NCBI GenBank assembly: GCA_009838645.1
Contig: VXRC01000032.1
Coordinates: forward strand, 1-64,000
DNA: 64,000 nt
DNA from: Gemmatimonadota bacterium
Lineage (GTDB): Bacteria > JAAXHH01
Reading direction: 5' to 3'
Shown one piece after another: positions 360-63,355 of this stretch; the stretch's first letter is position 1; each line of letters opens with the position of its first letter. The position numbers and the translations under genes are program-made. The notes under the pieces are model-generated. The model did not search any database and was not told the origin of the DNA. It saw only the letters and a list, made by a program, of their open reading frames with translations.

Positions 360-554
360 ATGCCGAAAATCAAGACGTTGAAAGCGGCGGCGAAACGCTT
401 CAAGCGGGTCGCCTCCGGCAAGTTCAAACGCAGCCATTCCCACGCGACCCACAATAAGTTGTCCAAGAACGGCAAGCGCACGAGAAGCCTTCGCGGCACC
501 GCCATGGCGAGCAAGGCCGACACGCCGCGCCTCAGGCGGATGATGCCGAACTAA
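360..554 (+). CDS. rpmI: 50S ribosomal protein L35
   Basis: Small basic protein of the large ribosomal subunit. The 64 residues carry the family pattern: MPKIKT start, A-A-K-R-F-K, then K-F-K-R-S-H-S-H-A-T-H and a late R-R-M-M-P-N end. Length is normal for L35 (about 65). A purine-rich AGGAG lies about eight bases before the ATG. It sits between infC and rplT. Its last 14 bases are the seed of a 44-base tandem repeat that continues into the gap before rplT. Confidence 0.97.
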   Translation: MPKIKTLKAAAKRFKRVASGKFKRSHSHATHNKLSKNGKRTRSLRGTAMASKADTPRLRRMMPN

Positions 555-643
555 TAGTCATGGTGTGCCTGACCGCACAGCCTGGGATGCCAAACTAGAT
601 GTCATGGTGTGCCTGACCGCACAGCCTGGGACGCCGAACTAAT
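543..643. repeat. 44-bp tandem repeat continuing from the 3' end of rpmI
   Basis: The block at 557-600 is repeated at 601-644 with few mismatches (unit about 44 bases). The final bases of rpmI, including the stop codon (TGCCGAACTAAT), match the end of each unit. The gap thus looks like two extra copies of a segment anchored on the end of rpmI. There is no convincing reading frame in it. Confidence 0.85.
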
Positions 644-659
644 TTAAGGAACAGAACAC

Positions 660-1016
660 ATGCCACGTGCCACGAACGCCACCGCCTCGCACAGGCGGCG
701 CAAGAAAACCATCAAGCTGGCCAGGGGATACTGGGGCCGCCGCAACCGGCTTTACCGGACGGCCCGCGAAGCCGTCAACCGTGGCTGGGCCTATGCGTAC
801 CGCGACCGCCGCCGCCGCCGTCGCGATTTCCGCCGTCTGTGGATCACCCGGATCAACGCGGCGGCAAGGCTCAACGGCCTGACGTACGGTCAACTCATAC
901 ACGGCATGAAGCTGGCCCGGATCGAAATCGACCGGAAACTCCTTGCCGAACTCGCCGTCAACGATCCGCCCGCCTTCGCCGTGGTGGCAGACGCAGCCAA
1001 AGCGCAGGTCTCCTGA
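660..1016 (+). CDS. rplT: 50S ribosomal protein L20
   Basis: Essential early assembly protein of the 50S subunit that binds 23S rRNA; in other bacteria it also represses its own operon. The 118 residues match L20 throughout: MPRATN start, a long basic helix ([17 protein letters not shown]), the [12 protein letters not shown] stretch and [10 protein letters not shown]. The length equals the family norm. A TAAGGAACAG ribosome-binding region precedes the ATG. No L20 autoregulatory pseudoknot was recognised in the short repeat-filled gap upstream. Confidence 0.97.
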
Positions 1017-1061
1017 CGCTAAACCACCGTAGACCGCTGAAGGACCGGGACCGGACCATTC

Positions 1062-2072
1062 ATGGTACAGGAAGCAGAAGCGATTGAAGCCCGGGCGCTG
1101 GAGGAAATCGCCCGCGCCGCCGACCCGTCGGACCTGGAAGATATCCGCATCAGGTACATGGGGAAGAACGGCGACCTGACCCGCGTCCTGCGGTCCGTGG
1201 GCAAGGCGGAACCCCGAGACCGCCCCCGCATCGGCCAGCGGGTCAACCAGGCCAAGAAGACCATCGGCGAAGCCCTGGAAGCGCGCAGGGCGGCGTGCGA
1301 AGCGAGTGGGGAAACCGCGGCCGGCGACCTGGACGTCACGCTGCCGGGACGCCCCCCGCCCCTGGGAAGCAAGCATCCGCTGACCCTGATCCGCGAGGAA
1401 GTCACCGAGATCTTCCGGGACATGGGTTTCTCGGTGGTGGACGGTCCCGAGGTGGAGTGGGACTACTATAACTTCGAAGCGCTGAACATCCCGCGTGACC
1501 ATCCGGCCCGGGACACCCAGGACACCTTCTATCTCGGCAGCGACATCGTGCTCCGGACCCATACCTCGCCGGTGCAGGTCCGGGTCATGGAACAGCAGAA
1601 ACCCCCGGTGCGCGTGATCGTGCCGGGACGCACCTACCGCCACGAGAACCCCGACGCCACCCACGCCTTCACCTTCCATCAGTGCGAGGGCCTGTACGTG
1701 GACAAAGGCGTCACGATGGCGCAGCTCAAGGGCGACATGACCTATTTCGCCCAGCGGCTCTTCGGCGGGAAGGTCAAGGTGCGTTTCCTCCCCGATTTCT
1801 TCCCCTTCACCGAACCCAGCGTACAGTACGACTTCTCCTGTGTCGCGTGCGGCGGAGGCGGTTGCCGGATTTGCAAGCACTCGGGCTGGCTGGAGATCTC
1901 GGGCGCCGGCATGGTCGACCCGGCCGTCTTCGGATTCGTGGACTACGATCCGGAAGTATACACCGGCTACGCCTTCGGCATGGGGCTGGACCGCCTCGCC
2001 ATGTTCAAGTACGGGATCGACAGCATCCATATGTTCCTGGAGAACGACCTGCGCCAGCTCGAAGGCAACTGA
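1062..2072 (+). CDS. pheS: Phenylalanyl-tRNA synthetase alpha subunit
   Basis: Catalytic subunit of the (alpha-beta)2 enzyme that charges tRNA-Phe. The 336 residues contain an amino-terminal helical tRNA-binding arm (about 1-95) and a class II catalytic domain. Motif 2 is seen as G-R-T-Y-R-H-E around residue 190 and motif 3 as G-Y-A-F-G-M-G-L-D-R-L-A-M around 305. The cysteine-rich C-V-A-C-G-G-G-G-C-R-I-C segment near 260 is typical of bacterial alpha subunits. Order and length fit a standard pheST operon downstream of rplT. The 45-base gap from rplT is without obvious terminator, so cotranscription is likely. Confidence 0.97.
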   Translation: MVQEAEAIEARALEEIARAADPSDLEDIRIRYMGKNGDLTRVLRSVGKAEPRDRPRIGQRVNQAKKTIGEALEARRAACEASGETAAGDLDVTLPGRPPPLGSKHPLTLIREEVTEIFRDMGFSVVDGPEVEWDYYNFEALNIPRDHPARDTQDTFYLGSDIVLRTHTSPVQVRVMEQQKPPVRVIVPGRTYRHENPDATHAFTFHQCEGLYVDKGVTMAQLKGDMTYFAQRLFGGKVKVRFLPDFFPFTEPSVQYDFSCVACGGGGCRICKHSGWLEISGAGMVDPAVFGFVDYDPEVYTGYAFGMGLDRLAMFKYGIDSIHMFLENDLRQLEGN

Positions 2073-2145
2073 GCGCGGTGCGTCCGGCACGGAGCCCGGC
2101 GACCGGCAAGAAGCCCGGCGTCCCCGGCAAGGAGCCAAGCGTCCG

Positions 2146-6927: not shown

Positions 6928-7049
6928 GGGTGTTGCCGGTAGAACGACATGGCCCACAAAGCGGTGTTTCCGCTAAAGCGGGATGGCCGGTAAAGCGGCG
7001 TTGCCGGTCGGTCGCTATGGCCGGCACAGACCGGGGAGGTAGGCCAGGC

Positions 7050-8377: not shown

Positions 8378-8644
8378 ATGAACGAAAAGGAAAAACCGAC
8401 TTTCGAGGAAGCGCTGAAGCGCCTCGAGCTTATCGTCGAACGCATGGAACAGGGCGATCTCCCGCTGGATGAATCACTGGCCCTCTTCCAGGAGGGCATC
8501 GAGCTTTCCCGGATCTGCACCCGGCAGCTGAACGCGGCGGACGAACACGTGCGCAAGCTGGTGCGCGTGGAGAACGGCCGGTTCGTCATCGAGCCCTTCG
8601 AACCGGAATCGCCGCCCAGCCAGGGCAACGACCTGCAGTTCTAG
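8378..8644 (+). CDS. xseB: Exodeoxyribonuclease VII small subunit
   Basis: Small regulatory subunit that wraps onto XseA. The 88 residues match XseB: F-E-E-A-L-K-R-L-E-x-I-V, then L-E/M-E-Q-G-D-L-P-L-D-E-S-L-A-L-F-Q-E-G and a short variable tail. It starts 17 bases after xseA with a GAGG ribosome-binding site. Length is typical (about 80). Confidence 0.95.
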   Translation: MNEKEKPTFEEALKRLELIVERMEQGDLPLDESLALFQEGIELSRICTRQLNAADEHVRKLVRVENGRFVIEPFEPESPPSQGNDLQF

Positions 8645-9895: not shown

Positions 9896-10857
9896 TGCAT
9901 CGCGTGGGCATCATCGCCAATCCGGCGCGGCCTGTAGTCGCCGGACTGATTCCGGAACTCGTGCGGCTGGTCAGGTCGCGGACTGGAAAGCCAACGCTCG
10001 CGGCCGGCCTGGCAGCCACGGCCGGCGAGGCCGTAGCCCGCAGGGAGTGCGTGGTCGTGGATTCGGACGAACGCGCTGTGGAGGACGTCGACTGGGTCAT
10101 CGCCATCGGGGGGGACGGCACACTGCTCAAGACCGCGCGCCTGGTGGGCGCTTCCGGCACGCCCATTCTCGGCGTCAATTCCGGAAAGCTCGGATTCATG
10201 ATGCAGACGACGCCCGGCGACCTCGACGACGCCCTCGAACGCGTCTTCGACGGGCGGTACACGCTGGAAAAGCGGCTGGTCCTGCAGGGACGGATAGCGA
10301 ACGGGACGTCGGTGGACGCGGCCGCCGGTGCGGGCACGGCCGCCGGTGCGGGCACGGCCGCCGGTGCGGGCGCGGCCGCCGCCGATGCAGACCAGGTAGT
10401 CGCCGGCGCGTTTTCAGCGCTGAACGATATCGTGATCGACAAGGGCGCGATCTGCCGGGTCATCGAACTGGGCATCTATATCAATGACGAATACGTCAAC
10501 GATGTCATGGCCGATGGGCTGATCGTGTCGACCCCGACCGGCTCCACAGCCTATTCGCTGGCGGCGGGAGGCCCGATTCTGGCGCCCGACATGGAAGCGA
10601 TCGTCGTGTCGCCCATCTGTCCGCATACGCTTTCCAATCGCGCCATGGTGCTCGCCGCACGGGACCGCATCCGGATCGAAGTCCGGGCGGACCATCCCGA
10701 TCTCCTGCTCACCGTGGACGGCCAGGAGAACGTGGTGATCCAGCCGGGCAGCACGGTCGAGCTCTTCCGGGCGGACCACACCATACACCTGATCCGGTTC
10801 ACGGATCGTTCCTTTTACGATGTCCTGCGCACGAAGCTGAAATGGGGGGAACGCTGA
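9895..10857 (+). CDS. nadK: NAD kinase, with an in-frame alanine/glycine repeat
   Basis: Phosphorylates NAD to NADP. The 320-residue product has the family signatures: I-A-I-G-G-D-G-T-L-L-K near residue 70, G-V-N-S-G-K-L-G-F near 100 and T-P-T-G-S-T-A-Y-S-L-A-A-G-G-P near 215. Between the first and second beta-rich parts (about residues 140-165) lies an alanine/glycine stretch coded by three 18-base repeats that ordinary NAD kinases lack. The insertion falls between conserved blocks, so the enzyme is probably still active. Its start overlaps the stop of the prenyl synthase, implying translational coupling. Confidence 0.94.
   Translation: MHRVGIIANPARPVVAGLIPELVRLVRSRTGKPTLAAGLAATAGEAVARRECVVVDSDERAVEDVDWVIAIGGDGTLLKTARLVGASGTPILGVNSGKLGFMMQTTPGDLDDALERVFDGRYTLEKRLVLQGRIANGTSVDAAAGAGTAAGAGTAAGAGAAAADADQVVAGAFSALNDIVIDKGAICRVIELGIYINDEYVNDVMADGLIVSTPTGSTAYSLAAGGPILAPDMEAIVVSPICPHTLSNRAMVLAARDRIRIEVRADHPDLLLTVDGQENVVIQPGSTVELFRADHTIHLIRFTDRSFYDVLRTKLKWGER
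10321..10374. repeat. In-frame 18-bp tandem repeat in nadK
   Basis: Three head-to-tail copies of GCCGCCGGTGCGGGCACG (third copy with one change). They code for A-A-G-A-G-T repeated and keep the frame. A partial unit continues on either side. Confidence 0.9.
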
Positions 10858-16170: not shown

Positions 16171-19188
<3,018 letters not shown>

Positions 19189-23810: not shown

Positions 23811-24731
23811 ATGTCCAAAGTCTCGGTCCTGATACTGCGCGCCGCGGGGATCAACTGCGACGAGGAAACAGCCCACGCCTTCCGTCTCGCCGGCGCGGAG
23901 CGGGTGGATCCCGTCCATATCAACGCCTTCATCCAGGGACGCCGTCGCCTGTCCGAGTACGACGTGCTGGTCCTGTCCGGAGGGTTTTCCTACGGCGACG
24001 ATCTCTCCGGCGGAAAAGTGCTCGCCAACGAGATGCAGTGCAAGCTGATGGAGGACGTGGAAACGTTCATCGGGGAAGGCAAACTCATCCTCGGCATCTG
24101 CAACGGATTCCAGGTGCTGGTCAAGATGGGGCTGCTGCCCCAGACGGAACGGGGGGGCAGGCGGCAGGAAGCGACGGTGTTCTACAACGACTCCGGCAAG
24201 TTCGAGTGCCGCTGGGTCTACCTGCGCAGGAACCCCGATAGTCCCTGCGTCTTCACCCGGGACATGCCGGAGACCATCTACATACCGGTCGCGAACGGTG
24301 AAGGCAAGGTCATACTGGCTTCGGAGGACGTGCGGTCGCGGCTGGGGCCGGGCGGCCATATCGCGTTGCAGTACGTCAACCCGCCCTGGGTGTCCGCCGG
24401 GGAATCCGCCGGAGTGGCCGGCGGTGAGGCGACCGCAACTGTCGCCCGAGTGGCCGGCGGTGAAGCGACCGTGGTTGTCGCCCGAGAGGCCGCCGAAGTG
24501 GCCGCCGAGTTAGCAACGGCAGCCACGCCTTATCCCTGGAGTCCCAACGGCTCGGTGGACGCCATCGCCGGAATCTGCGACTCCACGGGACGGATCTTCG
24601 GGCTCATGCCTCATCCGGAGCGTTACACCCACCCGACCCATCATCCCCGGTGGACCCGGGAGGGCTGCAGAGAGCCGGACGGCCTGCATATCTTCCGCAA
24701 CGCCGTGAACTATGTCCGCGGGGTCCAGTAG
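23811..24731 (+). CDS. purQ: Phosphoribosylformylglycinamidine synthase I, glutaminase subunit (PurQ)
   Basis: Class I glutamine amidotransferase that feeds ammonia to PurL. The ATG at 23811 begins the conserved S-K-V-S-V-L-I-L-R-A-A-G-I-N-C. The nucleophile Cys97 lies in G-I-C-N-G-F-Q-V-L and the His/Glu pair in M-P-H-P-E-R near residue 277. The protein has 306 residues, about 50 more than usual; the excess is an alanine/glycine/valine-rich stretch (about 204-240) coded by a 36-base repeat, placed between conserved blocks. The 120-base gap after purL is GC-rich without a clear signal. Confidence 0.95.
   Translation: MSKVSVLILRAAGINCDEETAHAFRLAGAERVDPVHINAFIQGRRRLSEYDVLVLSGGFSYGDDLSGGKVLANEMQCKLMEDVETFIGEGKLILGICNGFQVLVKMGLLPQTERGGRRQEATVFYNDSGKFECRWVYLRRNPDSPCVFTRDMPETIYIPVANGEGKVILASEDVRSRLGPGGHIALQYVNPPWVSAGESAGVAGGEATATVARVAGGEATVVVAREAAEVAAELATAATPYPWSPNGSVDAIAGICDSTGRIFGLMPHPERYTHPTHHPRWTREGCREPDGLHIFRNAVNYVRGVQ
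24412..24483. repeat. In-frame 36-bp tandem repeat in purQ
   Basis: Two copies (24412-24447 and 24448-24483) of a 36-base unit beginning GAGTGGCCGGCGGTGA, followed by a decayed third. Each unit codes for 12 residues of the type V-A-G-G-E-A-T-x-x-V-A-R. Confidence 0.88.
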
Positions 24732-27482: not shown

Positions 27483-27524
27483 GCCGGACGAAGCGCGGTG
27501 ACGGCCGGACGAAATGCGGTGAAG
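27483..27524. repeat. 21-bp tandem repeat downstream of the protease gene
   Basis: Two imperfect copies of a 21-base unit starting GCCGGACGAA, in the 262-base gap between the protease gene and the erpA-like gene. The rest of this gap holds a GC-rich inverted segment near 27462 and the promoter listed next. Confidence 0.65.
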
Positions 27525-27551
27525 GCAACCGGGCGACCTTCGATAAAGAGG

Positions 27552-32728: not shown

Positions 32729-32758
32729 GCCCTGGTCTCCGGTTTCCTCTGGTGTTGA

Positions 32759-32809
32759 CCGGTTGCCCGGCCGGACCGCTGACCCGTCGGACCGGCTGCC
32801 CGGCCGGAC
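32759..32809. repeat. 33-bp spaced repeat upstream of ftsY
   Basis: CCGG(T/C)TGCCCGGCCGGAC occurs at 32759-32776 and again at 32792-32809. It lies in the 215-base gap between ftsY and trxA, in which I see no further gene and no clear terminator. Confidence 0.65.
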
Positions 32810-36819: not shown

Positions 36820-36841
36820 ACGTTAAACCGGGTGTCCGGCG

Positions 36842-36914
36842 GCCCGGAGTGAGCCGCCGCCGCGCGCTGCAGCATCCGCCGGCGTGCCCGGAGTGACCCG
36901 CCGCCGCGCACTGC
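36842..36914. repeat. 44-bp period repeat beside the SDR gene
   Basis: A 29-base block beginning GCCCGGAGTGA occurs at 36842-36870 and 36886-36914 with two mismatches, just past the 3' end of the SDR gene. The period is 44, the same as at rpmI, but the sequence is different. Confidence 0.75.
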
Positions 36915-39207: not shown

Positions 39208-39316
39208 AGGCCGACACGGCGCACTGGACCGGGCGCGGGCGGAAACGGCGGGACGCGGAATCGCGGAGGCACCGGATCACAAATCGACAGATCGACCATA
39301 CATAAGGAGCACGGGC

Positions 39317-40289: not shown

Positions 40290-43037
40290 CTATCGGGCCC
40301 GGTTCTCGGCCGCCAGACCGATCAGGTTGGCGAAGAGTCGTACGGCGCCGGGCACGCCCGCGGGAAGCTGGCGGAACCACGCGTAGCCCGTGTAGATATA
40401 GCGCCCTTTGCCGTAACGGGCTTCGAGCAACCCGCCGCCCTTGGGTGGCTCGCCCGGGTCCTGGGAGGCCATGAGCGGCGTGTAGCGGGGGTCCCATTCG
40501 CCCTGGAAGTACAGGCCGCGTTCCTGCACCCACCCTTCGAAATCCGCGTCGGTGATCCGGTTGGGCCGGTTGAAGACGGGATGGTCCGGTACCAGGATGT
40601 CCATCGGCGCGTCCTCCCGGGTCACCCGGTCATGGGGGCGGTTGATCTGGAAGGGGTAGGGCCCGAACTGGTCGAGGTTGAAGGCGTACTTGTTGTACTG
40701 CACGATGTAGACGCCCCCGGCCTCCACATAGTCCAGCAGCCGCTGGTTCACGGCGATGAGATCGTCGCGGACTTCGTAGGCGCGGATGCCCGCGATGATC
40801 AGGTCGAAGGCGTCCAGGTCGGCCGTGGCGAGATCCTCACCCGTCAGCAGCCGCACCCGCAGGCCCATCTGCTCCAGTACGAGCGGGACCTGGTCGCCCG
40901 ATCCCATGATATAACCCACACTCAGGTCGTCCGGCAGATTGACCGGGGCCACCTGCACGACGGATGCCGAACCGCGGTACAGGTGCCTCGGTTCGATGTG
41001 GGGATAGGCGATAACCTCGTATCCCTCGCGGTATTCGTTCCCGCCGGCCTTTGCCACCGCCCGTACATCGTAGGCCCCGTCCTGGGCGTATCGTGCCGGG
41101 ATTACCGTGTAGTTGAACGTGGCGGCCTGCCCCCTTCCCGAGAACGTAAGGGGAAATACTCCGGGCGAGACTTCCCACCCGTCCGGCGCCTCGAGGGACA
41201 ATCCGCCATCGATCCCGCCGTCCACATTGCTGACCACGGACACGCTGAACCGCATGGGGCTTTCCCGTCCCGACGGTGCGACGACCACCTGCGGGTCCAT
41301 GGTGACCGACAGCGCGGGCACGACCTGGAGTTCGCGGCGGATTTCACCGAAGGCCCGGTCGGCGAAACGATACTGCGCGGCTTGGCGGATCTCGATCTCG
41401 ACGCCGTCCACGAGAAACCGGGCCCGGCCGATTACGGGCTGCGGGCGCCAGGGAGACCCGATCAGTGCCGTGTCTTCCACCACGACCCTCGGATCGTTCA
41501 GGGAGCGGCGGTGCCAGTAGGGCCGGGTGAGGCCGGCGTCGGGCGGTACTTCGACCCGCCAGTTCTCCGCGAAGCTTTCGTTGTAGCCGATGTCTGAGGA
41601 TTGCCGGGACAAACCGGGTGAACCGGACGAACCGGGTGGTCCTGGCGATCCGAACCGTCCAGGCGTTCTGGCCGGTCTGGCCGGGACCGGATCAAGGACC
41701 GCGGTCCAACCCTCCGGAACGTCCAGCGCCAGGTCGGTGACGCGGACGGGCCGCACACTGCGGTTCAGCAGCACCAGGTGCACGCCGAGCAGGTTGCCCG
41801 GGACGACCCGGTCGTCGCTGGTGAGCACTTCGAAGGCCATGCCGAGGGCCAGGACCGCCGCATTGGCGAAGTCTTCCTCCTTCTGATCGAGCAGAAAGAG
41901 CATATCCGCGAGGACGCCGGCCGGCAGGCCGCCCTGTTCAAGGTCGCTCCGGAGCGCCCGGATCATGCGCAGGCCTTCCAACACGGGGTCCAGCACGGCG
42001 GGAGGGTCCAGCGGCCGGTAGGCGTCCACGGCCTCGCGGGCCAACGCGTCCAGCCGCTCGAGCCGGCCGGCGAATCCGGGGATCTTTCCGGCGTCCGGTC
42101 CGGCCATGGCATGGAATCGCATGAAAGTCGTGTCCAGGCCGTCGAACAGGTGGGCGTCTCCGTCCGCGTGCGCCATGCCCGCGTGCGCCATGCCCGCACG
42201 CGCGACCAGCTTGATCTTCGTGGTCGCCGGACCCTTCGGCTGCAGGGTCCCCATGTCCTGGGAGCGGTGCATGCTGCGGCCCGCCAGGCCGAGTTCGCGG
42301 TACGACCGGTCCAGCACGGGACTGTAGGTGCCTACGTCGACCACCAGGGAATCGATGCTGTCGAAGGATGCCCGCGTGTTGTTGATGTACAGCTTGCGGG
42401 CCTGCCAGGGACGCAGGCCGTCCCGCAGGTGTTCGGGAAAGCGTTCCGGATCGGCCGCGACGATAAAGGCTTCGCGGGTGATCCTCCCGGCCGCCTGGTG
42501 ATGCCCGTGCCCGTCGCGGGGAGAATCGGCGAATACGGACACGATCACGTCGGGACGAAAGCGGCGGATGACCCGCACGACGTCCGAAAGCAGCATTTCA
42601 TCATGATTCCAGTATTCCAGGGTTTCCTCGGCCGACTTGGAGAACCCGAAGTCGTACGTCCGTGTGAAGAACTGCTCCGCGCCGTCGAATCGGCGGGCTG
42701 TCAGCAGCTCTTCCGTCCGGATCACGCCGATGGCGTCGTAGAGCTCGGGGCCGATGAGGTTCTGTCCACCTTCGCCGCGGTTGAGGGAAAGGTAGGCGGT
42801 CCGCGCGTGTAACCCCCGGCTCACGTAGGCGACCAGGGCGCTGTTCTCGTCATCGGGATGGGCGCCGGTGTGCAGCATGCTGGCCACGACGGGCAGGCGC
42901 AGCACGGCCTGGGCCAGGGTGGACGTCCCCTTGCCGTCGGGCACCGGACGGATGTCGCCGGCCGTGGCGGCTGTGCTGGCCGCGACAGTCGGCGCGGAGA
43001 AAGCGAGCAGGAGACAGAGGAGAAATCGAGTGTGCAT
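40290..43037 (-). CDS. Large secreted PIG-L family deacetylase with carboxy-terminal GATase-like domain
   Basis: A 915-residue exported protein: signal peptide at 1-20, then a PIG-L (GlcNAc deacetylase-like) domain with the zinc motif H-P-D-D-E near residue 60 and D-G-H-G-H-H-Q-A-A-G near 175. The middle (about 400-670) looks like beta-sandwich domains. The end (about 700-915) resembles a class I glutaminase/ThuA-like Rossmann fold (G-S-G-D-Q-V-P, F-D-L-I-I-A-G-I-R-A-Y). Two low-complexity inserts are present: A-G-M-A-H repeats near 290 and a G-S-P-G-P-P-type stretch near 490. Its substrate is probably an N-acetylated sugar, but this is inferred. Confidence 0.88.
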   Translation of the reverse strand: MHTRFLLCLLLAFSAPTVAASTAATAGDIRPVPDGKGTSTLAQAVLRLPVVASMLHTGAHPDDENSALVAYVSRGLHARTAYLSLNRGEGGQNLIGPELYDAIGVIRTEELLTARRFDGAEQFFTRTYDFGFSKSAEETLEYWNHDEMLLSDVVRVIRRFRPDVIVSVFADSPRDGHGHHQAAGRITREAFIVAADPERFPEHLRDGLRPWQARKLYINNTRASFDSIDSLVVDVGTYSPVLDRSYRELGLAGRSMHRSQDMGTLQPKGPATTKIKLVARAGMAHAGMAHADGDAHLFDGLDTTFMRFHAMAGPDAGKIPGFAGRLERLDALAREAVDAYRPLDPPAVLDPVLEGLRMIRALRSDLEQGGLPAGVLADMLFLLDQKEEDFANAAVLALGMAFEVLTSDDRVVPGNLLGVHLVLLNRSVRPVRVTDLALDVPEGWTAVLDPVPARPARTPGRFGSPGPPGSSGSPGLSRQSSDIGYNESFAENWRVEVPPDAGLTRPYWHRRSLNDPRVVVEDTALIGSPWRPQPVIGRARFLVDGVEIEIRQAAQYRFADRAFGEIRRELQVVPALSVTMDPQVVVAPSGRESPMRFSVSVVSNVDGGIDGGLSLEAPDGWEVSPGVFPLTFSGRGQAATFNYTVIPARYAQDGAYDVRAVAKAGGNEYREGYEVIAYPHIEPRHLYRGSASVVQVAPVNLPDDLSVGYIMGSGDQVPLVLEQMGLRVRLLTGEDLATADLDAFDLIIAGIRAYEVRDDLIAVNQRLLDYVEAGGVYIVQYNKYAFNLDQFGPYPFQINRPHDRVTREDAPMDILVPDHPVFNRPNRITDADFEGWVQERGLYFQGEWDPRYTPLMASQDPGEPPKGGGLLEARYGKGRYIYTGYAWFRQLPAGVPGAVRLFANLIGLAAENRAR
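42166..42195. repeat. In-frame 15-bp tandem repeat in the PIG-L gene
   Basis: Two exact copies of GCGTGCGCCATGCCC, coding on the minus strand for A-G-M-A-H twice. Confidence 0.85.
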
Positions 43038-43045: not shown

Positions 43046-43135
43046 CCGGTTCGATCGGGCGTCCGGCAGCGACCGCCGGTTCGATCGGGCGTCCGGCAGC
43101 GACCGCCGGTTCGATCAGGCGTCCGGCAGCGACCG
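43046..43135. repeat. 30-bp tandem repeat at the 3' end of the cytochrome c gene
   Basis: Three copies start at 43046, 43076 and 43106, each CCGGTTCGATCGGGCGTCCG and ten more bases. The copy at 43106 contains the stop codon and last codons of the cytochrome gene (minus strand), so the other two are extra copies of the gene end in the gap before the PIG-L gene. Confidence 0.92.
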
Positions 43136-44026
43136 TCTGTATAGCCAGATAACGCCCGCTACCACGAGGAATAGGCCGATGAACATCCAGCCGAACCTGC
43201 GCCGGGTATCGACTTCGGTGCGCGCGGTTTCCACTTCTTTTCTGATGCTTGGGTAGACCTGTTCCAGCGAATCGACGACGGCGACCATTGTCTCGAGTAC
43301 GAAGACGTGGGAGGCCCGCTCGACATAGGCGTCCCGCGCCAGGGTGGCCTGGGTCAGGATGAGGTCGACCGGGACCCCGGCCGAACGGATCTCCTCCGCG
43401 GCCAGCCGGAACTCGACGACCGGCTCGAGTCCCCGGTCGGTCAGGGCGATGTAATCGTCCATGATCGCCTGCTCGTGACAGTCCTCGCAGTTGTCGGGTA
43501 TGGAAATCAGGGACGCCTGGGGTTGGACTATTTCGTGGTTTGAGTGGCAGTCCACGCAGTTGGGCCAGAAATCCCCCTCGAGGCCATGGGGGCTGGGCAC
43601 GTAGTTATTCATCTGGACCTGGTGGCACTCGCCGCACAGTTCGTGGACGACGTAGGGGTCAGGCAGGCCGACGAAGTCCATTTCGACGTCGTGCGCTTCG
43701 TCCTCCACCATCGTGGCGGCGTTCCCGCCGTGACAATCCTGGCAGTAGATGTCCGCCGGAAGATGCGCGCTCCGCTGCCATTCGGCCACCGGCAGGCTCA
43801 TGTCTTCGTCGTCCAGGCCGGCATGGCAGCTGACGCAATTATTGGTCGCCGCGGACAGTTGCGCTTCCGCGGAATCTGCTGTCGTCCAGGAGAGGATCAG
43901 CAGCGGAAGGAGGAAGAGGGCCGCCCGCGCCCGGTATGCCGCCCGCGCCCGGTATGCCGCCCGCGCCCGGTATGCCGCCCGCGCCCGGTATGCCACCCGC
44001 GTACGATATGATGCCCGTCCGCTCAT
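43115..44026 (-). CDS. Pentahaem cytochrome c, membrane anchored
   Basis: A 303-residue electron carrier with five C-x-x-C-H haem sites: C-V-S-C-H, C-Q-D-C-H, C-G-E-C-H, C-V-D-C-H and C-E-D-C-H, between about residues 65 and 185. A signal peptide-like stretch (A-L-F-L-L-P-L-L-I-L-S-W) follows an unusual amino-terminal run of R-A-R-A-A-Y repeats, and a carboxy-terminal membrane helix (F-I-G-L-F-L-V-V-A-G-V-I-W) anchors it. Its start overlaps the cytochrome b stop (ATGA). Position implies it takes the place of cytochrome c1 as electron acceptor of the Rieske/cytochrome b complex. The true start within the repeats is uncertain. Confidence 0.92.
   Translation of the reverse strand: MSGRASYRTRVAYRARAAYRARAAYRARAAYRARAALFLLPLLILSWTTADSAEAQLSAATNNCVSCHAGLDDEDMSLPVAEWQRSAHLPADIYCQDCHGGNAATMVEDEAHDVEMDFVGLPDPYVVHELCGECHQVQMNNYVPSPHGLEGDFWPNCVDCHSNHEIVQPQASLISIPDNCEDCHEQAIMDDYIALTDRGLEPVVEFRLAAEEIRSAGVPVDLILTQATLARDAYVERASHVFVLETMVAVVDSLEQVYPSIRKEVETARTEVDTRRRFGWMFIGLFLVVAGVIWLYRRSLPDA
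43923..43994. repeat. In-frame 18-bp tandem repeat at the start of the cytochrome c gene
   Basis: Four perfect copies of GCCCGCGCCCGGTATGCC, then decaying units up to the ATG. They code on the minus strand for R-A-R-A-A-Y, placing a string of arginines before the signal peptide. Confidence 0.95.
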
Positions 44027-45237: not shown

Positions 45238-45261
45238 GCTCCGCGTAGAAAGTGCCGAACG

Positions 45262-45303
45262 GACGCCGGCGGTCAGACGCCGGCGGTCAGACGCCGGCGG
45301 TTA
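45262..45303. repeat. 14-bp tandem repeat at the 3' end of the Rieske gene
   Basis: Three copies of GACGCCGGCGGT(C/T)A at 45262, 45276 and 45290. The last copy covers the Rieske stop codon, so the spacer towards cytochrome b was formed by extra copies of the gene end. Confidence 0.9.
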
Positions 45304-45819
45304 CACGCCGACGATGATCTTGTCGTCGGTGACGGACAGTTCGACCGCGGTCAGGGGACCGGGAATCGGTCCGCCCTGGACGCTGCCGTCCGTGCCGAAT
45401 ATGCCGCCGTGACAGGGACAGATCAGGCTCTGCGTTCCCCCCTCCCACTTGACGACGCAACCCAGGTGGGGACAAACGGCGTTGTAGGCGATGTAACCGT
45501 CGGAAGTGTTGACCACGATGGTCGGCCGGCCCCGGTAGATAACCGTCCTGGACGTGCCGGGAGGCAGGGACGCGCGGTCGATTTCAACCCGGTTGGCGCC
45601 TTCGGCTTCGGGGGGTGGTTCGATGTAACGGATGAGCGGATAGACGGCCATCAGGGAGCCGATACCGCCCAGCGCGCCGAGGCATCTCTTCAGGAATCGG
45701 CGGCGGCGGACCGGATCGGGACGCGTCTTCCCTGGGGTCTTTCCGGTGGTCTTTCCGGGGGTCTTGCCGGACTTCTCGCCGGGTGCGGCTGGCCCGGGCG
45801 GCTTCTGTGACGAGGACAT
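45301..45819 (-). CDS. Rieske 2Fe-2S protein
   Basis: Iron-sulfur subunit that passes electrons from quinol to cytochrome c. The 172 residues have both cluster motifs, C-P-H-L-G-C near residue 117 and C-P-C-H-G-G near 137, with the P-x-P-G-P-L end. A lysine/threonine/proline/glycine-rich amino terminus (K-T-P-G-K repeats) precedes a membrane helix (L-G-A-L-G-G-I-G-S-L-M-A-V) after R-R-R-R-F, a twin-arginine-like arrangement. It is the first gene of the bc operon; its promoter is at 45858-45886. No clear ribosome-binding site precedes the ATG. Confidence 0.95.
   Translation of the reverse strand: MSSSQKPPGPAAPGEKSGKTPGKTTGKTPGKTRPDPVRRRRFLKRCLGALGGIGSLMAVYPLIRYIEPPPEAEGANRVEIDRASLPPGTSRTVIYRGRPTIVVNTSDGYIAYNAVCPHLGCVVKWEGGTQSLICPCHGGIFGTDGSVQGGPIPGPLTAVELSVTDDKIIVGV
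45725..45770. repeat. In-frame 12-bp tandem repeat in the Rieske gene
   Basis: Nearly four copies of GTCTTTCCGGGG-type units, coding on the minus strand for T-P-G-K or T-T-G-K before the membrane helix. Confidence 0.85.
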
Positions 45820-47990: not shown

Positions 47991-48027
47991 TCGCCTCTGC
48001 TGGAATGGTCCGGAGACTACTTGCCGA

Positions 48028-48096
48028 CTACTTGCTGCCGCGGTAGGCGCCTACTTGCCGCCGCGGTAGATAACTACTTGCCGCCGCGGTAGGCGA
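48028..48096. repeat. 23-bp tandem repeat at the 3' end of the ridA-like gene
   Basis: Three copies start at 48028, 48051 and 48074, each CTACTTGC(T/C)GCCGCGGTAG plus a few bases. The copy at 48074 holds the stop codon and last codons (Y-R-G-G-K) of the RidA-like gene; the other two fill the gap to the oxidoreductase gene. Confidence 0.9.
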
Positions 48097-53199: not shown

Positions 53200-54906
53200 A
53201 TGCGAAAGTCAGTGATTGCAGCGACCATCGCGGGACTGATGTCCCTGGTATGGTCCACCGGCGGCGAGGCCCAGGTGCGCAGGTCCACCGCGGACCTGGT
53301 GCTGAAAAACGGCACGGTCTACACGATGGACGCCGATCGGCCCAAGGCGCAGGCCGTGGCCGTCATCGGCAACCGGATCGCCGTCGTGGGCGTCGATGCG
53401 GACGTGGAGCCCTTCATCGGTCCCGATACCCGGGTGATCGATCTCGAAGGCCAGACCCTGGTGCCCGGGTTGAAGGAAAGCCACGGCCACCTCATGGGCA
53501 TCGGGATTGCCAAGATGACGGTCGACCTGGTGGGCATTTCGGGTTACGACGAACTCATCGAGCGGGTGCTTGCGGCGGCCGACGGTGTGGAGGAGGGCGA
53601 TTGGATCACCGGCCGCGGGTGGCACGAGGAGAAGTGGACCGACCGCAGTTCGCTCACAGTCCGTGGGTTCATGACCCACCACAAGCTGAGCGAGGCCGTG
53701 CCGGATATCCCGGTGTACGTGCGACGGGCCGACGGCCATGCCGCCTTTGCCAACGCCAAAGCCATGGAACTGATGGGGATCGACCGGAACACGCAGTCTC
53801 CCGAAGGCGGCGACATCATCAAGGACGCCGATGGCAACCCCACGGGGATCCTGGTGGACAAGGCCATGGGACTGGTGAGCGTTCCCGGCCTGACGGAGAA
53901 CCAGCGGCGGCAGGCCCTTGAACTCGGCATCCAGGAATGCTTGGCCAACGGCATCACGATGTTCGATGACGCCGGAGTCGGCGAGGACGGGATCGACCTG
54001 TACAAAGAGTACGCGGACGCGGGCAAGCTGGACATGCGCGTCTACGTGATGGCCTCGAATCTGCACACCATGGTCGCCCTGCAGAAACCGTGGTCTCACC
54101 CCGAGGGGTTTCTCACCGTCCGTGCCGTCAAGATGTACGGAGACGGGGCGCTCGGCTCGCGGGGCGCCTGGCTGCTGGAGCCCTACGAAGACGATCCGGG
54201 AAATTCCGGATTCCCCACGACCCCGCCCGACATGATCTACGACGCCGCCCGTTTCGCCCTGGAGCATGGATGGCAGGTGTGCACCCACGCCATCGGCGAC
54301 CGCGGTAACCGCATGATGCTCGACATGTACGAGAAGGCGATGGAGGAATTCCCCCACGTGAAGGACCACCGGTTCCGCGACGAACATACCCAGATCCTGG
54401 ACGAGGCGGACATCCCCCGGTTCGCCCAACTGGGCGTGATCGCGTCGATGCAGGGCATACACGCGACCTCGGACCTTCCCTGGGCGCCGGACCGGCTCGG
54501 TACCTCCCGCACGGCGGAGGGCGGCTATGTCTGGCAGAAGCTGCTACAGCATGGCGTGAAGGTCATCAACGGGACCGACGCGCCGGTGGAGGACATCAGT
54601 CCCATCGCTTCCTTCTACGCCAGCGTGACCCGTGAGCGGCCGGACGGTACGCCCGAAGGCGGGATGTTCGGCGACCAGCGCATGTCGCGCCAGGAGGCGT
54701 TGCGGTCCTATACCCTGGACGCCGCCTACGGCTCGTTTCACGAAGACGTGCTCGGGTCCATCGAGCAGGGCAAGCTCGCCGATTTTACGGTGTTGTCGAA
54801 AGACATCATGACCGTGCCTGAGAACCAGATCCTGGACACGGAAATCGTGTATACCATCGTGGACGGGAAAGTGCGGTACGAGAGAGGGCGGCCCGCGGTT
54901 CCGTGA
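53200..54906 (+). CDS. Exported YtcJ-type amidohydrolase
   Basis: Metal-dependent hydrolase of the amidohydrolase-3 type. The ATG at 53200 was chosen for its GAGGAGG site and signal peptide (V-I-A-A-T-I-A-G-L-M-S-L-V-W ... E-A-Q). The 568 residues include A-D-L-V-L-K-N-G-T-V-Y-T-M-D near 30, V-P-G-L-K-E-S-H-G-H-L near 87 (metal-binding H-x-H), T-H-A-I-G-D-R near 365 and N-G-T-D-A-P-V near 455. Such proteins act on amides or cyclic ureides; the substrate is not known. Upstream codons in the same frame are repeat-derived. Confidence 0.93.
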   Translation: MRKSVIAATIAGLMSLVWSTGGEAQVRRSTADLVLKNGTVYTMDADRPKAQAVAVIGNRIAVVGVDADVEPFIGPDTRVIDLEGQTLVPGLKESHGHLMGIGIAKMTVDLVGISGYDELIERVLAAADGVEEGDWITGRGWHEEKWTDRSSLTVRGFMTHHKLSEAVPDIPVYVRRADGHAAFANAKAMELMGIDRNTQSPEGGDIIKDADGNPTGILVDKAMGLVSVPGLTENQRRQALELGIQECLANGITMFDDAGVGEDGIDLYKEYADAGKLDMRVYVMASNLHTMVALQKPWSHPEGFLTVRAVKMYGDGALGSRGAWLLEPYEDDPGNSGFPTTPPDMIYDAARFALEHGWQVCTHAIGDRGNRMMLDMYEKAMEEFPHVKDHRFRDEHTQILDEADIPRFAQLGVIASMQGIHATSDLPWAPDRLGTSRTAEGGYVWQKLLQHGVKVINGTDAPVEDISPIASFYASVTRERPDGTPEGGMFGDQRMSRQEALRSYTLDAAYGSFHEDVLGSIEQGKLADFTVLSKDIMTVPENQILDTEIVYTIVDGKVRYERGRPAVP

Positions 54907-54965
54907 TGGGACCGGCCGAAGCAAGCGGCCCGCCATGCCGTAATGGTAAGGCCGAAGCGGACCAC

Positions 54966-55009
54966 GCAGCGCGCCGAAGTACAACCGGCAGCGCGTCGAA
55001 GTACAACCG
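54966..55009. repeat. 22-bp tandem repeat after the amidohydrolase gene
   Basis: Two copies of GCAGCGCG(C/T)CGAAGTACAACCG at 54966-54987 and 54988-55009, followed by the terminator. Confidence 0.88.
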
Positions 55010-55019
55010 GCAGTGTAAG

Positions 55020-55168: not shown

Positions 55169-55900
55169 ATGGCCGCTCATCTCTGGGTCGGCCTGTTGAC
55201 CGGCCTGATGGCGATGCAGGGTGTTGAAGCGACGGGGGTCGTCCGGACGCCGGAGGACGTCGGACCGCTGGAGTACGTCGGACCGCCGGAGCAGCTTCAT
55301 ACGGCGGAGACCGTCACCGGAAAGATGCGCCAGCGCTTCGACGCCGTGCGGTCTCTGGCGGCCCGGTATACCGTTACGACGTTTGCGGCCGTGCTCGAAA
55401 GCCGTAGCGAGACCGAAGGGAAACTCTATCTGCAGAGGGACCGGAACCGCCTGCGCATGGAAGAGGCCGGCCAGACCATCGTTTCAGACGGCGAGACGCT
55501 GTGGACCTACGTGCCCGGCAACCGGCAGGTCATCGTGTCGCCGGCGGGGGAAGAGGGATCGGAATCCGGACCCGGGCGCACGGGCCGGCCAGGCCGACCG
55601 GACGACTTCATATTCAACTACTCGAACCGTTACCTGTATGCGCTGGAGGGCAGGGAACCGGTCGATGGCATGCCGTGCTCCCGGCTCAGGCTCACCGCCG
55701 TCGAACCGGCCGACGGCCTTCCGGATCTGCGCATCTGGGTGGACGAGAAAAACTGGCTTACGCGGAAAGTGACGTACAGGGACGACATGGGGTCTGAAAC
55801 CACCCTGCGTTTCATGGATTACCGTCTGAACGAGAAACTCGCTCCCGGGTTGTTCGAAATGACGGCGCCCGAGGGGGTCGAATGGGTCGACCTGCGCTGA
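55169..55900 (+). CDS. LolA-like outer membrane lipoprotein carrier
   Basis: Periplasmic carrier that moves lipoproteins to the outer membrane. The 243-residue product begins with a short hydrophobic signal (V-G-L-L-T-G-L-M-A-M). The LolA-type half-barrel is seen as L-A-A-R-Y-T-V-T-T, E-G-K-L-Y-L-Q-R-D-R-N-R-L-R, D-G-E-T-L-W-T-Y-V-P-G-N-R-Q-V near residue 107, and L-R-I-W-V-D-E-K-N-W-L near 190. A glycine/arginine-rich insert (about 130-145) and a repetitive D-V-G-P-L-E-Y-V-G-P-P-E stretch near the start are unusual. It heads an envelope-related operon with a BamD-like gene. Confidence 0.85.
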   Translation: MAAHLWVGLLTGLMAMQGVEATGVVRTPEDVGPLEYVGPPEQLHTAETVTGKMRQRFDAVRSLAARYTVTTFAAVLESRSETEGKLYLQRDRNRLRMEEAGQTIVSDGETLWTYVPGNRQVIVSPAGEEGSESGPGRTGRPGRPDDFIFNYSNRYLYALEGREPVDGMPCSRLRLTAVEPADGLPDLRIWVDEKNWLTRKVTYRDDMGSETTLRFMDYRLNEKLAPGLFEMTAPEGVEWVDLR

Positions 55901-57372: not shown

Positions 57373-58271
57373 TCATCCCCCCCTTACGCCGCTACAGGAT
57401 CCCCGTCACGGGGATATTCCTCGCCCTGCTCGTGGTTTCGGCGTGCAGCCCGCCCGGATTCGAGTCCGACTGGACCGCGGAGGAACTCTACGACTACGCC
57501 ATGGAGCGCGTGGAGCAGGAGGACTGGCTGAATGCCCTGGACGCCTTCCGGGCCATCACCCTCGGCCACTCCGGCAGCGATATCGTGGACGACGCCCTGT
57601 ACCATCAGGGGGAAATGCACATCAACATGGAGGAATACCCCCTGGCCACGCTCGTGTTCCGGCGGCTGATCAGCGATTTTCCCCAGAGCCCGTACAGCGA
57701 CGAGAGCCAGTACAAGCTGGCCTATGCCACGTTCCTCCAGTCCAATCCGCCCCATCTCACACAGGACAAGACCTTCGAAGCCATCCGCGAACTCCAGTTC
57801 TTCCTCCAGGAGTATCCCGACAGCGAATGGAGCGCGGAAGTCCACGAGCTGCTGCAGCAATGTTTCGACAAGGTGGCCGAGAAGGATTACCGGATCGGCA
57901 ACCTCTACTACAAGTTGAAGGACTGGGAAGCGGCCCGTCTCTATTTCGGCGAACTGCTGGAAACCTACCCCATGAGCAACTGGGCTTCCCGGGCGCAATT
58001 CGAAATCGCCGACAGCTACGCGAGGGAGGGGAAATACCGGGAAGCCATCGAGCAGTTCGAGATTTTCATCCAGAGCTATCCCGAAAACGAACGGTCGGCG
58101 GAGGCCGGAAAGCGTCTTTCCGAACTGAGAAACAGTTACGTAGCGCCATCCCTGGCCGAGGACGGCCCCATGGACGACACGTCTTACACGGACGACCCGG
58201 CTTCCACGGACGACCCGGCTTCCACGGACGGATCCTCACCGGCCGAATCCGAGAGCGGCAACTCACCGTGA
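57369..58271 (+). CDS. bamD: BamD-like outer membrane assembly lipoprotein
   Basis: TPR lipoprotein of the outer-membrane-protein assembly (BAM) machinery. The 300-residue protein has a signal peptide with the lipobox V-V-S-A-C (probable Cys26). About five TPR units follow: A-E-E-L-Y-D-Y-A-M-E near 42, then Y-P-L-A-T-L-V-F-R-R-L, A-I-R-E-L-Q-F-F-L-Q-E-Y-P, Y-Y-K-L-K-D-W-E-A-A-R-L-Y-F and Y-R-E-A-I-E-Q-F-E-I-F. The carboxy-terminal tail has D-D-P-A-S-T repeats. It overlaps rimO and nadD by four bases each (ATGA and GTGA). Confidence 0.9.
   Translation: MIIPPLRRYRIPVTGIFLALLVVSACSPPGFESDWTAEELYDYAMERVEQEDWLNALDAFRAITLGHSGSDIVDDALYHQGEMHINMEEYPLATLVFRRLISDFPQSPYSDESQYKLAYATFLQSNPPHLTQDKTFEAIRELQFFLQEYPDSEWSAEVHELLQQCFDKVAEKDYRIGNLYYKLKDWEAARLYFGELLETYPMSNWASRAQFEIADSYAREGKYREAIEQFEIFIQSYPENERSAEAGKRLSELRNSYVAPSLAEDGPMDDTSYTDDPASTDDPASTDGSSPAESESGNSP
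58190..58225. repeat. In-frame 18-bp tandem repeat in the bamD-like gene
   Basis: Two exact copies of GACGACCCGGCTTCCACG, coding for D-D-P-A-S-T in the disordered tail, with decayed flanking units. Confidence 0.9.
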
Positions 58272-62400: not shown

Positions 62401-63105
62401 CTGGAACGCGTGGCAGGCGACCACGATCTCCACGTCTTTCATCTGCTGCATCAGCCGCTCGTACCGCTCGTACTTGCGCACCTGCCGCCGCAGCGTGCTC
62501 ACGCTGCGCTCGACCTCGTCCAGGAGGTCGGCGATACGGACCAGGTCGTGCTCGGTCCCTTCGAGCTTCCGCTGCGCCAGGCGCCGCCGCGTCTTGTACT
62601 TGTTGATGCCGGCGGCTTCCTCGATGAGCTGGCGCCGTTCCAGGGGGCTGCCGTTCACCACCGATTCCACCATGCCCTGCTCGATGATGGAGTAGGCGTG
62701 GGCGCCCATGCCCGTGTCCAGCAGGAGGTTGGTGATGTCCTTGAGGCGGCAGGGAACCTTGTTGATCTGGTACTCGCTCGCGCCCGAGCGGAAATAGCGG
62801 CGCGTGATCGTGACTTCGCTGTATTCGACAGGCAGCATCTGCTCGCTGTTGTCGATCGTCAGCGACACCTCCGCCATGCCGAGGGGCTTGCGGGCGGCCG
62901 TGCCGTTGAAGATGATGTCTTCCATCCGGTCGCCCCGCAGCGAAGTCGCGCGGTGCTCCCCCAGCGCCCAGCGAATGGCGTCGACGATATTGGACTTGCC
63001 GCAGCCGTTCGGACCGACCACGGCCGTGATGCCGTCGCTGAACTTCACCTTCAGCCGGGTGGAGAATGACTTGAAACCGATCATTTCAAGATGGGAGAGA
63101 CGCAT
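59467..63105 (-). CDS. smc: Chromosome segregation protein SMC
   Basis: Large ATPase that organises and separates chromosomes. The 1212 residues show Walker A (G-P-N-G-C-G-K-S-N) near residue 33 with F-K-S-F before it, a first coiled coil (about 165-490), a hinge (about 510-670, with G-V-L-A-D and L-T-G-G-S-S-G) and a second coiled coil. The signature L-S-G-G-E-T-A-L-T-A near 1105 and Walker B (F-C-V-F-D-E-V-D-A-P-L-D-D-A-N) end it. The last 30 residues are alanine/glycine/glutamate-rich. Partner genes scpA and scpB are not in this window. Confidence 0.97.
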   Translation of the reverse strand: MRLSHLEMIGFKSFSTRLKVKFSDGITAVVGPNGCGKSNIVDAIRWALGEHRATSLRGDRMEDIIFNGTAARKPLGMAEVSLTIDNSEQMLPVEYSEVTITRRYFRSGASEYQINKVPCRLKDITNLLLDTGMGAHAYSIIEQGMVESVVNGSPLERRQLIEEAAGINKYKTRRRLAQRKLEGTEHDLVRIADLLDEVERSVSTLRRQVRKYERYERLMQQMKDVEIVVACHAFQDLRRQTEPVRERIRQFAERKEAIQTRIRTAEAEVEKSKAVQLEKEEKLQQRQDAVNQIDDQIRALEEELLVSKERRTGLEQRARSASGEAEQAETELEGIRSQLARIGDDRKTLETALEQARAAFAERDEASRTYAGRISAQKEATQALRDRSMAAIQQHSSELAAISSLETRVASLRKRSAEVGSARKKLAEELASKKAAVETVQKELRDVRAVVEENASLHANLTESVQNAQQCIESARDELSGLETTIATAEKEWTLLDRMHRQYEGYGQGVRTLLTNGADVDGLRGVLADGITIDKAYETVIAAYLDDMLQYVVAGRTKDAEAGLAYLREQEAGRASFILLDRMKSRPAPADLPFEDDGIIGRASTMVKSDKALAPAVTHLLSRVVLVKDVETALRLSPLFDTDQDWRLLTAGGEVVDPAGVLTGGSSGSSEAGESDLLRRAERIAEIEGELEEDRAQRDKVAGELEGLETELAALAQRQASVEQVLGESRRKLMETESGERQLDFERSRMTEQDEELAREADTLAADAKAAAGEREQRKTAMETLARDRVSAEAEERTNQQTLDEMEEERQHLAEAANEARVALVSMESRSNELSTADEFLTQENERLANLLTQRKTEAVEAGSQSTELEKAQKVNEKQLEAHYATRRERALDRDAVLEEHQNLQEAERHLQQHLGENRNELTQVQEQVHQAELEDAELYMKSNEIRRQLMDRHDTDPEGMDELPRIEELDEYSPDAAQTLRDGIQRKVDDLGPINMAAVEEYRAGKERLDFLQQQQNDLIEAKDNLEKTIIKMNKAARSRFMTTFEEVRTNFMTTFQTLFEGGEADLMLEEGDPLEAGIEIMARPGGKRLQSLALLSGGETALTAIALLFAIYLVKPSPFCVFDEVDAPLDDANVRRFASALRQFTSDTQFLVVTHNKRTMEAADYLYGITMEEPGLSKMVSVRLEDADSEALETAAAPGEEANGAGTVGV

Positions 63106-63196
63106 CGGACACGGATCCTGATGGCGAATACAGCCGGTTTTGAAATACGGTAAAGTCGGATCGGGTTGAAAATGGGTTTCAGGAGACTATTAAGGG

Positions 63197-63226
63197 GATA
63201 TATTAGTATATGTAGGGCCTTGTCAA
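63197..63226 (-). promoter_or_regulatory. Promoter of smc-coaE
   Basis: On the minus strand TTGACA (63221-63226) is followed by TATATC at 18 bases (63197-63202) or TAATAT at 15 bases (63200-63205). The gap 63106-63310 between smc and the glycosyltransferase gene is otherwise AT-richer than its surroundings and holds no gene. Confidence 0.6.
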
Positions 63227-63247
63227 GCGAATTATACATTATATACG
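63220..63247 (+). promoter_or_regulatory. Possible promoter of the glycosyltransferase gene
   Basis: TTGTCA (63220-63225) and TATACG (63242-63247) with a 16-base spacer. Its -35 box overlaps that of the smc promoter on the other strand, so the two would compete. Confidence 0.35.
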
Positions 63248-63310
63248 GCGGGCCCGGACCGCTGGAAACCACTGTAAACACGGATCGAAAGGGATTTTGA
63301 GGGGCCAGAT

Positions 63311-63355
63311 ATGGCGATGCCGGATATGGCGCGGCCGGATATGGCGCGGCCGGTG
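63311..63355. repeat. In-frame 15-bp tandem repeat at the start of the glycosyltransferase gene
   Basis: Three units of ATGGCGCGGCCGGAT type (63311, 63326, 63341), each beginning with an in-frame ATG, so the gene has three stacked possible starts. Confidence 0.88.

What the first reader, a model, noticed from the sequence alone, without database searches (positions are those of the whole stretch)
543..63355. Short tandem repeats spread through the whole window, frame-preserving inside genes
At least eighteen minisatellite-like repeats were read. Inside genes the units are 18 (nadK), 36 (purQ), 33 (NtrC-type), 15 (PIG-L), 18 (cytochrome c), 12 (Rieske), 18 (bamD) and 15 bases (glycosyltransferase): all eight divisible by three. 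Between genes units of 44, 14, 23 and 22 occur. This fits frequent slippage or segmental duplication, with selection removing frame-breaking events. Such density in core housekeeping genes is unusual and could be a lineage trait that tunes linkers and spacers.
Basis: partly seen in the sequence, partly recalled or inferred. Interest (0 to 1): 0.75.

Follow-up and report, generated by a model that had tools for sequence, protein, structure and literature searches.

The report
Genus-wide turnover of short tandem duplications
In a little-studied genus of uncultured bacteria, almost every spot that tolerates a length change (gene spacers, protein linkers and tails) keeps acquiring short tandem duplications that differ between species, while frame-breaking ones inside genes are removed, so the lineage appears to mutate in an unusual way.

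Summary
TRF finds 24 arrays (score >=50) in the window against 0.6 expected. Nearest named relatives are MAGs labelled Latescibacterota/Gemmatimonadetes. Five congeners are syntenic at 5-8% substitutions; 64 sites in 64 kb vary in length by >=9 nt, 52 of them hold tandem repeats in some species, and unit and period usually differ between species. Three of the 24 arrays (43198, 47432, 48967) are fixed coding coincidences. In 1.25 Mb of the focal clade 165 of 170 coding arrays have periods divisible by three (non-coding 92 of 197). Indels >=9 nt per 100 substitutions are about 0.95, against 0.06-0.30 in two control genera; small indels and dN/dS are not raised, so relaxed selection alone does not explain it. 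Units are locus-unique and born by local duplication with 0-4 nt microhomology. Best explanation: a genus-level mutational bias towards tandem duplications of about 9-45 bp, filtered by purifying selection. Adaptive tuning is not supported. The molecular cause is unknown: SbcD is missing from all 12 genus genomes and present in family and order relatives, but a repeat-poor control genus lacks it too. Intensity varies within the genus.

The parts
542..643 (+). 44-nt unit x2.3, from the last codons of rpmI (L35) into the rpmI-rplT spacer
   Evidence: orthologous segment 12-42 nt in G001, G003, G006, G009, same 44-nt unit in G002; found at no other locus
2084..2144 (+). 21-nt x3.0 array in the spacer between pheS (1062-2072) and pheT (2146-4566)
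   Evidence: length 19-91 nt between species
6958..7008 (+). 17-nt x3.0 array between the RNase Y gene (5371-6927) and xseA (7050-8360)
   Evidence: 17/34-nt arrays in three congeners, nearly empty in G003
10319..10381 (+). 18-nt x3.5 array in nadK, residues 142-163, between the N- and C-terminal NAD kinase domains
   Evidence: congeners 4-34 residues shorter, all in frame
16301..16333 (-). 9-nt array in secA, tail linker before the SEC-C motif
24407..24492 (+). 36-nt x2.4 array in purQ, residues 199-228
   Evidence: homologues align on either side and lack the repeat
27483..27526 (+). 21-nt x2.1 array in the spacer after the subtilase gene
   Evidence: different 21-22-nt arrays in four congeners
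32757..32809 (.). 17-nt x3.2 array in the spacer upstream of 31817-32728 (-)
33565..33662 (-). 33-nt x3.0 array in an NtrC-type regulator, residues 458-491, between AAA lid and HTH
   Evidence: same 33-nt array in G009, other sequences elsewhere
36836..36903 (.). 22-nt x3.1 array in the spacer between 36924-37673 (-) and 35057-36712 (-)
   Evidence: 5 nt in G003, 139 nt in G001
42164..42197 (-). 15-nt x2.3 array in the PIG-L-domain gene, residues 281-292
   Evidence: one copy in G001 and G009
43046..43135 (-). 30-nt x3.0 array over the 3' end of the cytochrome c gene and the spacer to the PIG-L gene
   Evidence: one copy in G006, two in G001, G002, G009
43920..44001 (-). 18-nt x4.6 array at the N terminus of a multihaem cytochrome c, directly before the hydrophobic signal segment (repeated YRARAA)
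   Evidence: start codon assignment uncertain
45262..45310 (-). 14-nt x3.5 array between the Rieske and cytochrome b genes, overlapping the Rieske stop
45725..45770 (-). 12/24-nt array in the Rieske protein, residues 17-32, before the Rieske domain
48025..48096 (.). 23-nt x3.1 array in a spacer and the end of 48074-48592 (-); repeats in all six genomes
54888..55013 (+). 37-nt x1.9 and 22-nt x2.2 arrays in the spacer before the LolA-like gene
55244..55291 (+). 18-nt x2.7 array in the LolA-like protein, residues 26-41, before the LolA domain
58168..58230 (+). 18-nt x3.5 array in the C-terminal tail of BamD, residues 267-288
63303..63353 (+). 15-nt x3.4 array at the N terminus of a GT2 glycosyltransferase
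43198..43237 (-). NOT part of the phenomenon: period-21 coincidence of fixed length in the cytochrome c gene (likewise 47432-47474 and 48967-49006)
   Evidence: identical length in every congener compared

Best explanation
The window shows a genus-level mutational bias: short DNA segments (about 9-45 bp, mostly 15-22) are tandemly duplicated far more often, relative to point mutations, than in the other bacteria examined. Duplications are local (the unit is usually seen at the same place in a relative) and need little or no microhomology. Once two copies exist they gain and lose copies by slippage or recombination and then decay by substitution. Purifying selection removes events that break a frame, hit a domain core or disturb a promoter, so survivors sit in spacers, interdomain linkers and protein tails, with lengths divisible by three inside genes. 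Shown: the excess, the lineage restriction, turnover between species, locus-specific units, the frame filter, normal dN/dS. Inferred: that the excess arises at mutation and not at retention, and that copies change by slippage. Unknown: which replication or repair change causes it; SbcCD loss is one correlated candidate that is not sufficient.
For: 24 arrays against 0.6 expected. Congeners differ at 64 sites in 64 kb, 52 with tandem repeats. Indels >=9 nt per 100 substitutions 0.81-1.13 in 15 focal pairs against 0.06-0.30 in two control genera; repeat-associated in 49-72% against 0-17% in the G034 genus. Clean insertions that copy the adjacent segment: 52 of 150 against 0 of 9 in the G034 genus. 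79 of 95 arrays have their unit in another species while 51 of 95 are private as arrays. Density drops to 0.1-0.5 per 10 kb in family, order and other phyla. Indels <9 nt and dN/dS not raised. Coding periods 165/3/2 mod 3, non-coding 92/41/64. Units unrelated between loci.
Against: Intensity varies: deeper congeners are intermediate or low, which sits poorly with one fixed genus-wide cause. Control genera are only two and more diverged (10-15%) than most focal pairs, though one control pair at 8.5% also shows few events. No mutation-accumulation or strain data. Selection favouring repeats cannot be formally excluded. Only 12 clean births were available for the microhomology test.
Confidence: 0.75

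Rival explanations
1. Relaxed selection: a host-associated lineage with a small effective population size merely retains slightly harmful duplications that other bacteria lose; the mutation spectrum is ordinary.
For: Arrays sit in tolerant places and tolerance is needed for them to persist.
Against: dN/dS 0.136-0.147 in focal pairs, equal to or below the controls; small indels are not raised; arrays are still depleted between divergent genes.
Confidence: 0.1
2. Adaptive tuning: repeats are maintained by selection because copy-number change adjusts linkers and spacers.
For: Repeats recur at the same sites in many species and sit in linkers of housekeeping proteins. An E. coli example exists where tolA repeat number affects stress tolerance (PMC3477136, abstract only).
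Against: Unit sequence and period change between species and some species have nearly nothing at the site (6 nt in nadK of G009, 4 nt in purQ of G006); density is highest in spacers and lowest where promoters lie.
Confidence: 0.06
3. The cause is loss of the SbcCD nuclease at the base of the genus (a specific form of the best explanation).
For: SbcD over the family cut-off in none of 12 genus genomes, but in both family members and both order relatives.
Against: Repeat-poor G038 and G052 lack SbcD too, and so do repeat-poor congeners such as G008 and G011; a single correlated loss among many untested genes.
Confidence: 0.15
4. Dispersed mobile or satellite element inserted at many places.
For: Many arrays across the genome.
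Against: Units of different loci are no more alike than shuffled units apart from a few GC-rich or Gly/Pro-coding ones; the 44-nt unit is found only at rpmI-rplT in three congeners.
Confidence: 0.02
5. Assembly artefact of metagenome-assembled genomes.
For: All genomes are MAGs, and tandem repeats are known to mislead assembly (PMC6868369, abstract).
Against: Seen in separately assembled genomes, two with contigs above 2.5 Mb; frames stay open through the arrays; arrays are short (median 2.5 copies); control MAGs do not show it.
Confidence: 0.02

Closest known systems
Bacterial minisatellites / VNTR loci (as used for MLVA typing)
   Same: Head-to-tail units above about 9 bp, copy number differing between related genomes, in spacers and in frame inside genes.
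   Different: Usually a limited set of conserved loci per genome with a recognisable unit; here about one variable site per kilobase, low copy number (median 2.5), and units replaced between species of one genus.
Satellite-rich prokaryotes surveyed in PMC6749651 (Methanosarcina, Leptospira interrogans, Burkholderia pseudomallei)
   Same: Lineage-specific abundance of tandem repeats, most long-unit periods multiples of three.
   Different: Those are counted with at least four copies, and some form dispersed families. In this genus such long satellites are only modestly frequent (7-19 per Mb in the three best-sampled genomes, controls up to 9); the excess is in young two- to three-copy arrays unique to their locus.
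Short tandem duplication as a source of insertions in eukaryotes (indel literature, e.g. PMC2374710; recalled in general, abstract only seen)
   Same: Short insertions are to a large part tandem copies of adjacent sequence.
   Different: Here in a bacterium, with larger units, and dominating the indel spectrum (indels >=9 nt outnumber smaller ones 1.5-3 to 1).

Membership tests
Bacterial minisatellites / VNTRs | Tandem head-to-tail units of about 9-100 bp beyond chance | tested here: met
   24 against 0.6 expected
Bacterial minisatellites / VNTRs | Copy number varies between related genomes | tested here: met
   Between species of the genus at most sites; three arrays in the window fail and are excluded
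Bacterial minisatellites / VNTRs | Copy number varies between strains of one species | not testable with these tools
   One genome per species is held; metagenome reads not available
Dispersed satellite family or mobile repeat | Same unit at several unlinked loci | tested here: not met
Long-satellite genomes as in PMC6749651 | Many arrays of four or more exact decamer copies | tested here: inconclusive
   7-19 per Mb in the three best-sampled focal genomes, up to 9 per Mb in control sets, with my own emulation of SATFIND
Mismatch-repair-deficient hypermutability | MutS missing and small indels raised | tested here: not met
   MutS-family genes present in all genomes searched; small indels not raised
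NHEJ fill-in duplication | Ku present | tested here: not met
   No Ku in the genus
SbcCD-deficient repeat instability | SbcD absent where repeats are dense and present where they are rare | tested here: inconclusive
   Absent in 12 of 12 genus genomes and present in G012-G015, but also absent in repeat-poor G038 and G052

The most novel reading that the evidence does not exclude
The genus has lost or altered a genome-stability function (SbcCD is the best correlated candidate, perhaps together with another change), so that short tandem duplications needing almost no homology dominate its indel spectrum: a natural bacterial lineage with rapid minisatellite birth and turnover in which linkers and spacers evolve mainly by duplication.
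Probability: 0.3. Interest if true: 0.75.

Novelty: new variant of a known kind. Interest (0 to 1): 0.55.

Why it matters
How minisatellites are born is hard to study because young arrays are rare in bacteria. This genus offers about one variable site per kilobase, full synteny at 5-8% divergence and a dozen species, so birth, growth and decay of arrays can be read directly, and the cause can be sought by comparing repair genes with repeat-poor relatives of the same family. It also means that linker lengths and spacer sequences in these genomes are full of neutral noise, and that the arrays could serve as strain markers.

Tried and rejected
Dispersed unit family: cross-locus comparison, k-mer enrichment and folding of units gave only GC-rich motifs and no hairpin signal; the 44-nt array was found only at its own locus. 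Long satellites: SATFIND-like count only modestly raised and noisy. NHEJ fill-in duplication: no Ku. Loss of MutS or RecJ: present. Error-prone polymerases: a second PolIII alpha lies beside a Y-family gene throughout the genus (ImuB-DnaE2-like), but similar pairs occur in G016 and G019 too, so it is not diagnostic. Apparent frameshifts of RimO and BamD in G009 were mapping artefacts. One control dN/dS (G050-G045, 1.46) is an evident gene-call error and was ignored. The 270-kb G001-G006 comparison gave only two perfect duplications, too few to add to the microhomology test. Tree of the region: G009 is closest to G000, then G002; the 44-nt array is in G000 and G002 but not G009, so arrays do not follow the tree strictly.
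Full report
Observation. TRF lists 61 rows at score 30 and above in the window. After merging, 24 separate arrays reach score 50 and 16 reach 70, where sequences simulated with the same 2nd- or 5th-order composition give 0.6 and 0.02. Three of the 24 (43198-43237, 47432-47474, 48967-49006; all period 21) have identical length in every congener compared and are ordinary coding coincidences.

Where it comes from. The window is contig C32 of a 3.81-Mb draft genome in 50 contigs. The nearest named records, 89-98% identical in RNase Y, are metagenome-assembled genomes labelled Candidatus Latescibacterota or Gemmatimonadetes. Some isolate names suggest marine sponge sources, and sponge-associated Latescibacterota are described in PMC12993501, but the habitat was not verified here. 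Eleven further genomes of the same genus are held.

Comparison with congeners. Five congeners were fetched over the syntenic region. They align over nearly the whole stretch with 5-8% substitutions, and the alignments break where the repeats lie. Sixty-four clusters have a length difference of 9 nt or more; 52 hold a tandem array in at least one of the six genomes, 48 vary in two or more congeners and 39 in three or more. At one site species may have nothing, a different period, or an unrelated unit: at 39206-39292 G001 has 45x3.3, G006 29x4.3, G002 20x4.6, and G003 only 6 nt. In comparisons with the window only 10-27% of arrays have a same-unit array in the partner, and 51 of 95 arrays are private to one genome, yet the unit is seen at least once in some other species for 79 of 95. 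That is the pattern of local birth followed by rapid turnover.

Is it a lineage trait? Arrays with score 70 or more number 1.25-2.9 per 10 kb in the six focal genomes over the window region and 1.4-1.6 elsewhere in the window's own genome, 2.2 in G005 and 0.2-1.1 in the other congeners sampled, 0.1 and 0.5 in the two family members, 0.25 in G014 of the order, and 0.17-0.26 in other phyla. The trait is strong in the window's clade, weaker in deeper branches of the genus, and not seen in the relatives outside it. Some of the weaker genomes are fragmented, so part of the gradient may be technical.

Indel spectrum. For all 15 pairs of focal genomes, indels of 9 nt or more run at 0.81-1.13 per 100 substitutions, outnumber smaller indels 1.5-2.9 to 1, and are associated with a recognisable repeat in 49-72%. 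In the genus of G034 (GC 0.67, ten pairs) the figures are 0.08-0.29, 0.08-0.61 and 0-17%; in the genus of G038 (GC 0.65) 0.06-0.30 and 0.08-0.40, with 0-3 repeat-associated events per pair. Distant congeners lie between. Among clean insertions 52 of 150 in the focal clade are at least 80% identical to the adjacent segment, against 0 of 9 in the G034 genus. Indels below 9 nt are not raised. dN/dS is 0.136-0.147 in focal pairs and 0.13-0.20 in controls, apart from one value spoiled by gene calling. A general loosening of selection would be expected to raise small indels and dN/dS as well; it did not. The pairs share branches and are not independent.

Frame filter. In 1.25 Mb of the focal clade coding arrays have periods 0/1/2 mod 3 in 165/3/2 cases and non-coding arrays in 92/41/64; density is 1.5 per 10 kb in genes and 13.5 outside; arrays in genes gather towards both ends; spacers between divergent genes, where promoters lie, carry 5.8 per 10 kb against 19-20 in other spacers. 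In a 270-kb comparison of G001 and G006, 50 of 53 coding indels of 9 nt or more are multiples of three, while the others split 38/33/31. Gene calls are from a simple codon-usage caller of my own, so a few array assignments at gene ends may be wrong. In the window the coding sites lie between or outside Pfam domains: between the two NAD kinase domains, behind the main GATase_5 match of PurQ, between AAA lid and HTH of the sigma-54 regulator, before the SEC-C motif of SecA, and in the tails or N-termini of Rieske, BamD, LolA-like, SMC and glycosyltransferase proteins. The checked orthologous frames are open; two apparent shifts were mapping artefacts.

Mechanism. Twelve clean one-to-two-copy births have 0, 0, 0, 1, 1, 1, 1, 2, 3, 3, 3 and 4 nt of flanking microhomology (mean about 1.6; random segments give 0.86), and six further events with longer matches look like growth of existing arrays. 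So births need little homology, while growth is copy-based (inferred). Units of different loci are not related and do not fold unusually, and the 44-nt unit occurs only at the rpmI-rplT locus. MutS-family genes and RecJ are present (RecJ lies in the window at 50026-51735); the window also carries a probable xseA-xseB pair (7050-8360, 8378-8644; named by sequence and context, not tested by a family search); Ku is missing from the genus. SbcD is not found above the cut-off in any of 12 genus genomes and is found in both family members and in the order relatives. That places a loss near the origin of the trait, but the repeat-poor genus of G038 also lacks SbcD, and so do repeat-poor congeners, so the loss alone cannot be enough. 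It is a lead, not a cause.

Conclusion. A mutational bias towards short tandem duplication, specific to this genus in the sample examined and filtered by purifying selection, explains the finding best. The arrays are minisatellites by definition, and lineages with many satellites are known (PMC6749651), but that survey counts arrays of four or more copies, where this genus is only modestly rich by my emulation. What is unusual is the high birth rate of two- to three-copy arrays at about one variable site per kilobase. I found no description of such a lineage in the papers searched, which is a limited library.

Noticed in passing
41591-41670 (-), PIG-L-domain protein, about residues 456-482: The variable linker is a collagen-like Gly-Pro-Pro stretch (9-nt period) in G000, G002 and G009 but absent in G001, G003 and G006, a clear case of a protein feature gained or lost by short repeat turnover.
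   Followed up: partly
25349-27421 (+): A subtilase-family protease with a FlgD_ig-like C-terminal domain is far more diverged (about 75-83% DNA identity) than its neighbours (about 92%) in G001, G003 and G006, but not in G009 and G002 (about 89-90%); fast evolution or allele exchange.
   Followed up: no
G000:C36:18526-21764 and counterparts in the genus: A second DNA polymerase III alpha gene lies beside a Y-family polymerase gene, as in an ImuB-DnaE2 cassette, in most genomes of the genus.
   Followed up: partly
L039 (Candidatus Peribacteria contig MFXT01000021.1), whole locus: Nine arrays in 21 kb (4.2 per 10 kb, periods 15-33), as dense as the focal genus; another lineage worth checking.
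   Followed up: no
43115-45819 (-): Cluster of multihaem cytochrome c, cytochrome b and a Rieske protein, a likely electron-transfer complex.
   Followed up: no
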